From positions 1-6,148 of the forward strand of contig JAGQUE010000298.1 in the NCBI GenBank assembly GCA_020438665.1: 6,148 bases of DNA. The letters run 5' to 3'. Origin of the DNA: Nocardioidaceae bacterium (GTDB lineage Bacteria; Actinomycetota; Actinomycetes; Propionibacteriales; Nocardioidaceae). The translations under genes and the position numbers were made by a program. Below are positions 4,226 to 6,148 of the stretch, in pieces. The notes beneath the pieces are model-generated. The model did no database searches and had not been told where the DNA came from. It saw only the letters and a list, made by a program, of their open reading frames with translations. Numbering within the stretch: position 1 is the first letter of the stretch; each line of letters starts with the position of its first letter.

Positions 4226-4639
4226 ATGACCTACCAGGACCTGATGGCCGGGCCGCCCCCGACGCTGCTGCCCGAGGACCCCGCCGCCGCCGAGCTCGCC
4301 GCAGGGCAGTCGCCCGCCGACGTCGTACGCCGGCACCCGGCGTCGCCCGCGGCGTGGGCAGCGCTGGCCTCGTCGGCCGAGGGCTCCGGCGCCGACGACG
4401 TCACCGTCTATGCCTTCGCGCGGGTCGGCTACCACCGCTCGCTGGACATGCTGCGCCGCAACGGCTGGAAGGGCCACGGCCCGATCCCCTGGGAGCACGA
4501 GCCCAACCGCGGCTTCCTCACCTGCCTGGCCACGCTGGCCCGCAGCGCGCGCGCCATCGGCGAGACCGACGAGTGGGAGCGCTGCTCGACGTTCCTGCGC
4601 GACTCCAGCCCCGCCGCCTTCGACACCCTGTTGGGCTGA
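4226..4639 (+). CDS. DUF3151 domain-containing protein
   Basis: A 137-residue protein with no signal peptide or membrane segment, so presumably cytoplasmic. The centre carries the block that defines the actinobacterial DUF3151 family: YAFARVGYHRSLDMLRRNGW (62-81), KGHGPIPWEHEPNRGF (82-97) and, near the end, IGETDEWERCSTFLRDSS (111-128). The whole protein is essentially this one domain and has the normal length. The function is unknown, and no catalytic residues can be assigned with confidence; the invariant-looking Trp, His and Arg cluster in WKGHGPIPWEHEPNR may form a binding site. In mycobacteria the family member (Rv0360c, recalled from memory) lies near the fructose-bisphosphate aldolase gene. 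The same proximity holds here, with fbaA about 1.4 kb downstream on the opposite strand and the palindrome-bounded gene between them. Expression is probably from its own promoter. Confidence 0.9.
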   Translation: MTYQDLMAGPPPTLLPEDPAAAELAAGQSPADVVRRHPASPAAWAALASSAEGSGADDVTVYAFARVGYHRSLDMLRRNGWKGHGPIPWEHEPNRGFLTCLATLARSARAIGETDEWERCSTFLRDSSPAAFDTLLG

Positions 4640-4649
4640 CGCGGCTCAC

Positions 4650-4693
4650 CCCACCTCCCGGCCCGACCCACCTCCCGGCCCGACCCAACTCCC
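4650..4693 (+). repeat. 17-bp tandem repeat, about 2.6 copies
   Basis: The unit CCCACCTCCCGGCCCGA occurs at 4650-4666 and again, identically, at 4667-4683. A third, partial unit (CCCAACTCCC, one change) runs from 4684 into the palindrome. It begins 10 bases after the DUF3151 stop and is non-coding. The partial unit is also the outer end of the palindromic repeat. Confidence 0.75.
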
Positions 4694-4761
4694 GCGCCGC
4701 TGTGGCGGGTTAGTGACCGGTATACCCGTCACTAACCCCCCATGGCCCCGCACCAGTTGGG
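4684..4761. repeat. Left long palindromic repeat (terminal repeat copy 1)
   Basis: An imperfect palindrome centred between 4722 and 4723. The core 4703-4742 pairs at 18 of 20 positions (mismatches 4706/4739 and 4718/4727) and has the inner sequence GTTAGTGACCGGTATACCCG. Symmetry resumes outside the core through GC and GCG/CGC blocks to matching ends CCCAACT (4684-4690) and AGTTGGG (4755-4761), giving 30 Watson-Crick pairs out of 39 plus two G-T pairs. The direct comparison 4693-4742 with 5920-5969 is 47/50 identical. The stop codon of the adjoining - strand gene lies in the right arm. The repeat sits between two convergent genes, so as RNA it could form a stable hairpin from either side. Confidence 0.85.
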
Positions 4762-5799
4762 AGGCAGCTCCCCTGGAGTACGACGTCGCGGGTTCGCCGC
4801 AGCGAAGCGTGCCAGCTCCTCGGGCAGCCGGCAGCCGAACCGCCGACGCGTGGCGGCTTCCTCACGACGCAGCCGCACCAGGGTCGCCTCGCGCCGGGAG
4901 AAGAGGTCAACCCACGTGACATGGGAGATCCCGAGGCCGAGCGTGGCGATGTCGGTGTCCCGCTGACGATCGAGCCAGGCCACCTCGGCGGGGTCGGTCG
5001 TGGCCACGCCACCGTGCTCGGGAGGCAGATACTTCACCTTGCCGTCGAACTCGATCACGTGACACCCCACGCGCAGGTCACACCAGCGCACCCCGCCGGC
5101 GACCGGCACCGGAAACTGCAGATCGATGTCGCTGAACCCAAGCTCCGCCAGCAGGATCCGGGTCAATGACTCGCCTGGCGACTCAGCCCTGGCGTCGCCG
5201 AAGCCGAAAGCGCTCCGCGCCCTGCGGACATGAGGCCAGCTCGTCATCCGGGCGAGCTCGAGCTCGAACGCGCGGCGGGACACGCCCCGGTGCAGGACGT
5301 TGTCGATCGCAGCGACCCCCGACGCGAAGCCATGCTCCCTGGCGAGATCCAGCGCGGTCCGCGCCAGACCCGTCATGGCCATGCCATCACGGCGGACGAC
5401 ATCAGCCGGCAGCTCCCGACCGAGATGGTGCTTCACACCGTGACGCGTGCGGGAGCCGCCCACGCCGGGACGTGTGACATGAATCAGCTGGGAGCGCGCA
5501 GCGACAAGAGGGACCGCGAGGGCACGAGCAGCCGAGTCGTGACTGAGCAGATGGGGCGTTGCCATGTCGAGGTGCGCGGCGATGTCCCGCCACCGTGAGC
5601 GCTCGTGGTCGTCGGCAGCGTCCCAGCTCGCCCGCAGCAGATAGACGCCTCGTCGGACGACCCGCCACGGGCCCCGAGGCCGAAGGCACCCGCGGATCTC
5701 GTCGGCAGAGTAGCCCGAACCGAGGGCCTGCTGGCGGGTGAAGAGGCCGACCTGGGGGATTGAGAGCGCCATGAGCGCCGGGCGCAGGGCCTGGTCCAT
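4732..5799 (-). CDS. AbiEi-type antitoxin domain / DUF559-like nuclease domain fusion protein
   Basis: A 355-residue soluble protein. Residues about 14-56 (VGLFTRQQALGSGYSADEIR, then PWRVVRRGVYLL) form the N-terminal winged-helix seen in AbiEi-family antitoxin-domain proteins. The middle (about 84-165) has SHDSAARAL, IHVTRP and MTGLARTALDLAREHG, as in AbiEi-like regions. The C-terminal half resembles DUF559/Vsr-like PD-(D/E)XK nucleases: SPGESLTRILLAELG with E210, then D241 in CDL, and VIEFDGKVKY giving E250, D252 and K254, so the active site looks intact. No partner nucleotidyltransferase toxin (AbiEii) is adjacent, so toxin-antitoxin function should not be assumed. The ATG at 5799 is chosen because homologues start shortly before the winged helix; an in-frame ATG at 5910 would add 37 low-complexity residues, and neither start has a strong Shine-Dalgarno. 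The last nine residues (PNWCGAMGG) and the TAG stop are encoded by the left palindrome. It lies downstream of fbaA on the same strand, 211 bp away. Confidence 0.75.
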   Translation of the reverse strand: MDQALRPALMALSIPQVGLFTRQQALGSGYSADEIRGCLRPRGPWRVVRRGVYLLRASWDAADDHERSRWRDIAAHLDMATPHLLSHDSAARALAVPLVAARSQLIHVTRPGVGGSRTRHGVKHHLGRELPADVVRRDGMAMTGLARTALDLAREHGFASGVAAIDNVLHRGVSRRAFELELARMTSWPHVRRARSAFGFGDARAESPGESLTRILLAELGFSDIDLQFPVPVAGGVRWCDLRVGCHVIEFDGKVKYLPPEHGGVATTDPAEVAWLDRQRDTDIATLGLGISHVTWVDLFSRREATLVRLRREEAATRRRFGCRLPEELARFAAANPRRRTPGELPPNWCGAMGG

Positions 5800-5927
5800 G
5801 CCGGCATCGTGACGGCGCTGAGCCTCGTGCCGTGGAGAAGGACCGACGGCTGTGGACGGGGCGGCATCCAGCTGTCCCTGTGCGCCTGTGGTGGTCTGAC
5901 GTGACCCCATCGGCTCTTTCGCGCGGC

Positions 5928-5971
5928 TGTGGGGGGTTAGTGACCGGTATACCGGTCACTAACCCCCCACA
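5928..5971. repeat. Right palindromic repeat (terminal repeat copy 2), perfect 44-bp palindrome
   Basis: The 22-base arms are perfectly complementary with no spacer, centred between 5949 and 5950 on GGTATACC; the inner half is GGGGTTAGTGACCGGTA. After three mismatches, a further CGCGC/GCGCG pair (5920-5924 with 5975-5979) extends the stem. The right flank continues to AGTTGGG at 5982-5988, matching the outer end of the left copy, but the gene-side flank (5911-5917) lacks the matching CCCAACT. The palindrome lies 39 bp beyond the fbaA stop and upstream of the AbiEi-type gene, so it could act as terminator, operator or element end. Confidence 0.9.
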
Positions 5972-6010
5972 AGGGCGCGGCAGTTGGGAAAGCGAGTGCG
6001 GCGTACGGCG

Positions 6011-6148
6011 TCAGGCGCCGAGCGAGTGACCGGTGGAGGAGAGGTTCTCGCAGGCCTCGACGACGCGGGCAGCCATGCCCTGCTCGGCGGCCTTGCCCCA
6101 GGCACGGGGGTCATAGACCTTCTTGTTGCCGACCTCGCCGTCGATCTT
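6011..6148 (-). CDS. fbaA: Class II fructose-bisphosphate aldolase, C-terminal fragment (cut by window edge)
   Basis: The - strand frame is open from the right edge to a TGA at 6011-6013 and gives 45 residues, KIDGEVGNKKVYDPRAWGKA... ending STGHSLGA. This is the characteristic C-terminus of actinobacterial class II (zinc-dependent) fructose-bisphosphate aldolase, with GNKKVYDPR and the AEQGMAARVVEACENL helix. The full enzyme, about 340 residues, cleaves fructose 1,6-bisphosphate to dihydroxyacetone phosphate and glyceraldehyde 3-phosphate in glycolysis and works in reverse in gluconeogenesis. The catalytic and zinc-binding residues lie outside the window, so only the identity of the tail is seen. 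The gene is on the same strand as the AbiEi-type gene, with a perfect palindrome in the intergenic space that may end its transcript. Confidence 0.88.
   Translation of the reverse strand, partial: KIDGEVGNKKVYDPRAWGKAAEQGMAARVVEACENLSSTGHSLGA

What the first reader, a model, noticed from the sequence alone, without database searches (positions are those of the whole stretch)
4684..5988. Single-gene unit bounded by 59-bp palindrome-containing inverted repeats
Seen: 4684-4742 and the reverse complement of 5930-5988 agree at 54/59 positions, with agreement ending abruptly on both outer sides. The unit encloses just one gene, coding for a winged-helix plus predicted PD-(D/E)XK nuclease. Known analogy: REP sequences flank RAYT genes, where a DNA-processing enzyme acts on its own palindromes. 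Inference: this may be an actinobacterial selfish or domesticated element whose nuclease recognises the palindrome and spreads it, a type I do not recognise as described.
Basis: partly seen in the sequence, partly recalled or inferred. Interest (0 to 1): 0.72.

Follow-up and report, generated by a model that had tools for sequence, protein, structure and literature searches.

The report
Mobile palindromes with resident nuclease gene
A soil-bacterium gene for a predicted DNA-cutting protein sits between two copies of a palindrome, and in relatives such genes often come with matching palindromes scattered through the genome, like a known family of mobile DNA repeats but with an unrelated enzyme.

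Summary
In detail: 4684-4742 and rc(5930-5988) agree at 54/59; 15 shuffles reach at most 41. The gene encodes an AbiEi-antitoxin-like DNA-binding part (residues 3-202) fused to a Vsr/I-Bth0305I-like nuclease fold (205-321). No genome is held for the window, so relatives were tested. In Nocardioides, 101 of 124 testable relatives have flanking inverted repeats (13 of 365 mismatched pairs), commonly ~70-bp palindromes. Left and right copies stay matched while syntenic orthologues diverge (49 of 52 pairs at 75-80% gene identity). One palindrome type is dispersed: 94 of 214 genomes, reversed-pattern control 0. Of 40 fetched places, 38 have no such gene within 2.5 kb; 30 of those 38 match best, among 207 flanking repeats, one from their own genome. 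Of five places compared between two related genomes, two lack the palindrome in one. This works like REP/RAYT systems, but the protein is not a Y1 transposase. That the nuclease moves the palindromes is inferred, not shown. Dispersal of the window's own palindrome is untested; it is absent from 215 relatives.

The parts
4684..5988 (.). Whole unit: inverted palindrome-containing repeats enclosing one gene
   Evidence: agreement drops to 7/20 outside
4684..4751 (.). Left terminal inverted repeat (68-nt arm); imperfect palindromic core 4703-4742
5921..5988 (.). Right terminal inverted repeat (68-nt arm); perfect 44-bp palindrome 5928-5971
4732..5799 (-). AbiEi-Vsr-like gene from the family-conserved start (ATG at 5799; the ORF reaches back to 5910); its stop lies inside the left repeat
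5194..5793 (-). AbiEi-antitoxin-like winged-helix plus C-terminal domain (residues 3-202 of P0001)
4837..5187 (-). Vsr / I-Bth0305I-like PD-(D/E)XK nuclease domain (residues 205-321); E210, D241, E250, D252, K256 invariant in 62 sequences
4226..4639 (+). Neighbour: DUF3151 gene, used as positional marker
   Evidence: Pfam PF11349 E 4.9e-55
6012..6148 (-).
   Evidence: name not confirmed by Pfam on this fragment

Best explanation
The unit is a resident gene of a REP/RAYT-like system built on an unrelated enzyme. An AbiEi-type DNA-binding half recognises the arms of ~45-75-bp palindromes. Its fused Vsr/I-Bth0305I-like half probably nicks or cuts at them, so that palindromes are copied to new intergenic sites, repaired from one another, or lost. 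The gene itself is mostly inherited vertically. Shown: matched palindromes at both ends of most tested relatives; dispersed, genome-specific palindromes without the gene; similarity of these to the resident gene's ends; palindromes missing from a close relative; concerted change of left and right copies; constraint on the gene. Inferred: binding, cutting, and that cutting drives copying. For the window element itself only the anatomy is shown.
For: Flanking inverted repeats 101/124 vs 13/365 mismatched pairs; 79 elements with [T/A]GTAAC...GTTAC[A/T] ends, unit 1.02-1.60 kb. With the same 450-bp windows and both outer flanks syntenic, left vs right of one element beats left of one vs right of its orthologue in 44/54, 49/52, 41/41 and 56/56 pairs at 80-85, 75-80, 70-75 and 60-70% gene identity. 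Dispersed palindromes in 94/214 genomes, control 0/214; 38/40 fetched places without trace of the gene; 30/38 best-matched by their own genome's gene ends among 101 genome/locus groups. In G009 two palindrome families each match a different resident gene. Genomes with a sampled TGTAAC-type gene have more extra copies (median 4 vs 0; 3 or more in 31/53 vs 15/65; p 1.5e-5). Palindromes of L295 and L299 absent in G017. Fold matches. AbiEi monomers bind pairs of 23-bp inverted repeats 3 or 13 bp apart, i.e. palindrome-sized sites (PMC7319586, passages).
Against: The window's own palindrome has no known dispersed copies and its genome is not held. 23 of 124 relatives show no inverted repeat at the threshold. 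Above 85% gene identity the left/right test is weak (1/8 with 3 ties; 21/29). 8 of 38 lone palindromes match another genome better or tie. 15 of 65 genomes without a sampled TGTAAC-type gene still have 3 or more copies (genes not exhaustively sampled). One genome pair only for presence/absence, five of six fetched G009 regions compared, and insertion versus deletion is not polarised; two of the five look more like loss of a segment. Copies in G048 mostly lie inside a larger ~600-bp repeat (14 of 16). No target duplication seen. No biochemical test; Foldseek E-values against PDB all exceed 0.05.
Confidence: 0.62

Rival explanations
1. The palindromes are operators: the protein is a regulator whose AbiEi half represses its own promoter and other genes, and the nuclease half is vestigial or does something else. 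Dispersed palindromes would be its regulon, co-evolving with its specificity.
For: AbiEi and Rv2827c autoregulate through paired 23-bp inverted repeats in their promoters (PMC7319586, passages). The upstream palindrome lies ~130 bp before the conserved start in the window.
Against: A second copy lies at the 3' end of the gene. Lone palindromes often lie beside gene 3' ends: 21 of 40 places read as between convergent genes by a crude ORF rule, a poor place for operators. Similarity spans the whole ~70 bp. E210, D241, E250, D252 and K256 are invariant in 62 sequences, which does not suggest a dead nuclease.
Confidence: 0.17
2. The palindromes are moved by some other factor (an IS transposase or replication slippage); the AbiEi-Vsr gene is a passenger or parasite that uses them as docking sites.
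For: In G048 a ~600-bp repeat carries the palindrome. In L298 two palindromes bound a segment with PadR-like and membrane-protein reading frames absent in G017.
Against: The window unit holds no second gene; copy number and sequence follow the AbiEi-Vsr gene; two families in one genome each follow their own gene.
Confidence: 0.12
3. The palindromes are ordinary bidirectional terminators or structured RNAs, and flanking similarity is convergent.
For: Frequent position beside gene ends, 21 of 40 read as between convergent genes (crude ORF rule).
Against: Genome-specific whole-length families, left-right matching and gene linkage are not expected of terminators. G-T mismatches are not in excess of A-C (108 vs 143 in 87 palindromes), so there is no RNA-strand signature. 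No Rfam family reaches its gathering score in 6 sources.
Confidence: 0.05

Closest known systems
REP / RAYT (REP-associated tyrosine transposase) systems
   Same: Single gene flanked by two palindromes in inverted orientation, co-evolving with them, and cognate palindromes dispersed extragenically (features as in the abstract of PMC2817692).
   Different: Enzyme is an AbiEi-Vsr-like fusion, not a Y1 transposase; palindromes ~70 bp, commonly with TGTAAC ends; at most 25 exact-pattern matches per strand per genome rather than over 100; Actinomycetes.
AbiE type IV toxin-antitoxin (AbiEi antitoxin; Rv2827c)
   Same: N-terminal 200 residues share the AbiEi fold; palindrome-sized DNA sites near the promoter.
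   Different: No partner toxin gene in the unit; nuclease domain fused; a palindrome at both ends and, in relatives, many elsewhere.
Homing endonuclease I-Bth0305I (EDxHD type, name recalled) and Vsr repair nucleases
   Same: C-terminal domain fold; viral-protein models named homing endonuclease, VSR or DUF559 also match.
   Different: Free-standing AbiEi fusion; tied to a repeat family.
IS elements and MITEs
   Same: Terminal inverted repeats around one gene; short non-coding relatives.
   Different: No recognised transposase, no target duplication seen in 79 elements, close relatives mostly syntenic.

Membership tests
RAYT | Y1/HUH tyrosine transposase domain | tested here: not met
   Pfam scan of 62 members at E<=0.1: AbiEi_4 in 58, no Y1 transposase among the 6 families listed; residues 3-321 of 355 are covered by AbiEi and Vsr-like fold matches
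RAYT | Gene flanked by two palindromic repeats in inverted orientation | tested here: met
   Window; 101/124 relatives
RAYT | Cognate palindromes dispersed in the same genome | tested here: met
   In relatives only: 30/38, 94/214 genomes with the pattern; window genome not held
RAYT | GTAG or CGTC tag at the palindrome end | tested here: inconclusive
   79 sets of ends were chosen by a [T/A]GTAAC pattern, so this is no unbiased test; the tag names come from the title of PMC3733652
AbiE type IV toxin-antitoxin | AbiEi antitoxin fold | tested here: met
AbiE type IV toxin-antitoxin | Adjacent AbiEii nucleotidyltransferase toxin | tested here: not met
   The unit holds one gene; the complete neighbours in the window are class I lysyl-tRNA synthetase, MFS and DUF3151 by Pfam; the gene beyond 6148 is cut off
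Insertion sequence | Terminal inverted repeats | tested here: met
Insertion sequence | Target site duplication | tested here: inconclusive
   Of 79 elements, equal flanking letters of 3, 4 and 5 bp in 1, 2 and 1; old insertions could have lost them, and the end was set by motif
Homing endonuclease | Homing-type nuclease domain | tested here: met
Homing endonuclease | Cleaves sites lacking the element and is copied there by repair | not testable with these tools
   needs biochemistry or genetics

The most novel reading that the evidence does not exclude
AbiEi-Vsr-like fusions are the cognate enzymes of a second, independently evolved class of REP-type mobile palindromes, found across Actinomycetes, in which an antitoxin-derived DNA reader steers a mismatch-repair/homing-type nuclease to palindromes and drives their copying and homogenisation.
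Probability: 0.48. Interest if true: 0.92.

Novelty: categorically new. Interest (0 to 1): 0.85.

Why it matters
REP-type repeats with a resident enzyme are known to me (recall), and in the papers seen here, only with Y1 tyrosine transposases. A second case with an unrelated nuclease would show that such genome-resident palindrome populations evolve repeatedly, would suggest a role for a large set of orphan 'AbiEi antitoxin' genes in Actinomycetes, and would make the open question of how REPs move testable with a second enzyme.

Tried and rejected
Phage or plasmid origin: no match in phage records, no relative confirmed in viral contigs, one weak plasmid hit (31%, Tsukamurella). Window palindrome elsewhere: 0 viral contigs (exact), 0/39 and 0/215 genomes. 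Defence system: PADLOC reports only AbiEi models. Solved relatives by sequence: none convincing (three weak ankyrin rows, E 0.14-0.85). RNA element: no Rfam match in 6 sources, no G-T excess. Recent jumping of the whole unit: among the 70 closest pairs listed most are syntenic, so I dropped frequent whole-unit transposition.

Mended analyses. One search used a faulty synteny count (boolean addition). One search replaced it, but there the repeats had been chosen for left-right likeness, which favours the within-element score (49/54, 56/56, 55/55, 103/103); the same-window test is the one I rely on. One search used a wrong-frame peptide for the fbaA marker; one search repeats it in the right frame: 48 places unchanged, 0 moved, 27 more found, of 81. 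I first read six printed empty sites as palindrome-free; one search shows that one, L162, holds a likely remnant (score 50 vs at most 25 shuffled), the other five score 25-34. G048's near-identical copies first looked like palindrome spread, but 14 of 16 lie in a larger ~600-bp repeat, two of them truncated, so they are not used as evidence.

Literature: searches listed no paper that I recognised as linking AbiEi, DUF559 or Vsr-like proteins, Nocardioides or Actinobacteria with REP-like palindromes. Seen: listings for all; abstract and outline of PMC2817692; matching passages of PMC7319586; one passage of PMC3733652.

Full report
Observation. The inverted repeats are there and abrupt: 54/59 agreement, 7/20 just outside, 10/20 just inside; 15 shuffles reach at most 41/59. 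The right copy contains a perfect 44-bp palindrome. One gene lies between, on the minus strand; relatives share a start at 5799, so the ORF's 5910 start is probably too early. The stop codon falls within the left repeat.

Flanking palindromes are a family trait. Among 132 distinct relatives (124 with 450 bp on both sides), 101 have an upstream/downstream inverted repeat scoring 50 or more; 13 of 365 mismatched pairs do. In a redraw, the high-scoring control pairs ranged from 52 to 391; I suspect shared neighbour genes but did not check. In 79 of the 101 both ends hold the [T/A]GTAAC / GTTAC[A/T] motif, unit 1022-1599 bp. Other end types exist, among them double hairpins and the window's. Twenty-three relatives fall below the threshold, and some lost one side relative to a close relative.

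Left and right evolve together. The unbiased test takes the same 450-bp windows and compares upstream-with-own-downstream against upstream-with-orthologue's-downstream, for pairs whose outer flanks align on both sides. Own wins in 1/8 pairs with 3 ties (gene identity above 90%), 21/29 (85-90), 44/54 (80-85), 49/52 (75-80), 41/41 (70-75) and 56/56 (60-70). Pairs share elements and are not independent. Left-repeat similarity rises with protein identity (Spearman 0.39 over 5050 non-independent pairs). Third-position differences exceed first plus second in the six gene pairs checked, as expected under constraint.

Dispersed palindromes. The pattern TGTAACRCSNNGTTN{36,60}GTTACA occurs in 94 of 214 Nocardioides genomes, up to 25 per strand (25 recurs in five genomes, which looks like a ceiling although the output calls its counts whole); the reversed pattern occurs in none. 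In a first set of 12 genomes, 8 had matches, 50 places by my count. Nine of these flank genes already known; the other 41 were fetched as 40 regions. Thirty-eight of 40 regions have no trace of the gene within 2.5 kb (one of the 40, L282, is cut by a contig end); 29 of 40 palindromes overlap no ORF called coding by a crude GC rule, and 21 of 40 read as between convergent genes. Thirty of 38 are most similar, among 207 flanking repeats from 101 genome/locus groups, to one from their own genome; exceptions: G088 2, G017 2, G096 1, G020 1, G019 1, G073 1. For G088 and G096 the own-genome reference was the palindrome beside the gene in L264 and L282, found by the same pattern search. G009 has two families, each matching a different resident gene.

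Presence and absence. G009 and G017 are related genomes (85-97% identity in matched flanks). Of six G009 regions fetched, five were compared. One palindrome is shared (L297). In L295 the palindrome is missing in G017 with flanks intact; in L299 it is missing with 27 unrelated bases in its place. In L298 two palindromes bound a 1.8-kb segment with PadR-like and membrane-protein reading frames (named by eye), absent in G017, where a nine-base remnant of the palindrome ends remains, suggesting loss there. In L296 a palindrome plus a glyoxalase-like frame (by eye) is absent. Direction of change is unproven.

The gene's position. Of 80 DUF3151 regions fetched (209 of 214 genomes have that marker), 28 hold the gene: beside lysS and DUF3151 in 17, MFS and fbaA in 5, DUF3151 and fbaA in 3 (plus the window), others 3; contig ends cut some regions. 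Of six empty lysS-side intergenic regions inspected, five show no trace of the ends and one (L162) a likely remnant. The nearest relatives are mostly syntenic, so the gene itself seems to move rarely.

Wider. The 30 loci returned for the best AbiEi_4 matches in 197 genomes of the class include six with strong flanking inverted repeats: L359 (already known), L364 (a genome of the genus set), and L365, L366, L370, L373 from other genomes, with unrelated repeat sequences; the rest score at most 37, and 150 control pairs at most 38 except one of 215. L366 has 58- and 72-bp palindromes on either side of its gene and L365 two 48-bp ones. The four proteins have clear AbiEi_4 domains (E about 1e-11 to 1e-12); nuclease-type matches (DUF559, MTES_1575) are sub-threshold in three and absent in L370, so a fused nuclease there is likely but not established.

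Mechanism. AbiEi proteins bind as monomers to 23-bp inverted repeats 3 bp (AbiEi) or 13 bp (Rv2827c) apart (PMC7319586, passages): sites of the size of these palindromes. I infer that the AbiEi half reads palindrome arms and the nuclease half nicks or cuts there, allowing copying into new sites and repair of one copy from another, which would account for the concerted evolution. Binding, cutting and copying are not shown. The main rival, a regulon of operators, explains co-evolution but not the copy at the gene's 3' end, the places beside other genes' 3' ends, or the whole-length similarity.

Verdict. It works like REP/RAYT, yet is not a RAYT. Limits: the window's genome is not held, its palindrome type is unseen elsewhere, one genome pair supports mobility, and G048's copies lie mostly in a larger repeat.

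Noticed in passing
L328-L343 (G048): A ~600-bp repeat (85-95% identical) is dispersed in one Nocardioides genome and carries the palindrome in its middle (14 of 16 copies); L331 and L337 are truncated at or near the palindrome.
   Followed up: partly
L298 2501-4302: Two palindromes bound PadR-like and membrane-protein reading frames; the relative G017 lacks the segment and keeps a nine-base remnant of the palindrome ends, like a composite unit or an excision scar.
   Followed up: partly
L364, L365, L366, L370, L373: AbiEi-type genes, four of five outside the genus set, are flanked by matched inverted repeats of unrelated sequence; L365 also has a DUF3151-like reading frame downstream (by eye).
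   Followed up: partly
L105-L184: The lysS / MFS / DUF3151 / fbaA neighbourhood is rearranged again and again across Nocardioides, with the AbiEi-Vsr gene in several slots.
   Followed up: partly
L301 2501-2570 (G017): A lone palindrome in G017 matches the gene ends of G009 (L021) rather than those sampled in G017: possibly an orphan copy left after loss or divergence of its gene, or a gene not sampled.
   Followed up: no
L058, L060, L065-L067, L070, L071, L073, L181, L182: By eye, a subgroup carries two consecutive hairpins in each end instead of one palindrome, mostly in the lysS-DUF3151 slot.
   Followed up: no
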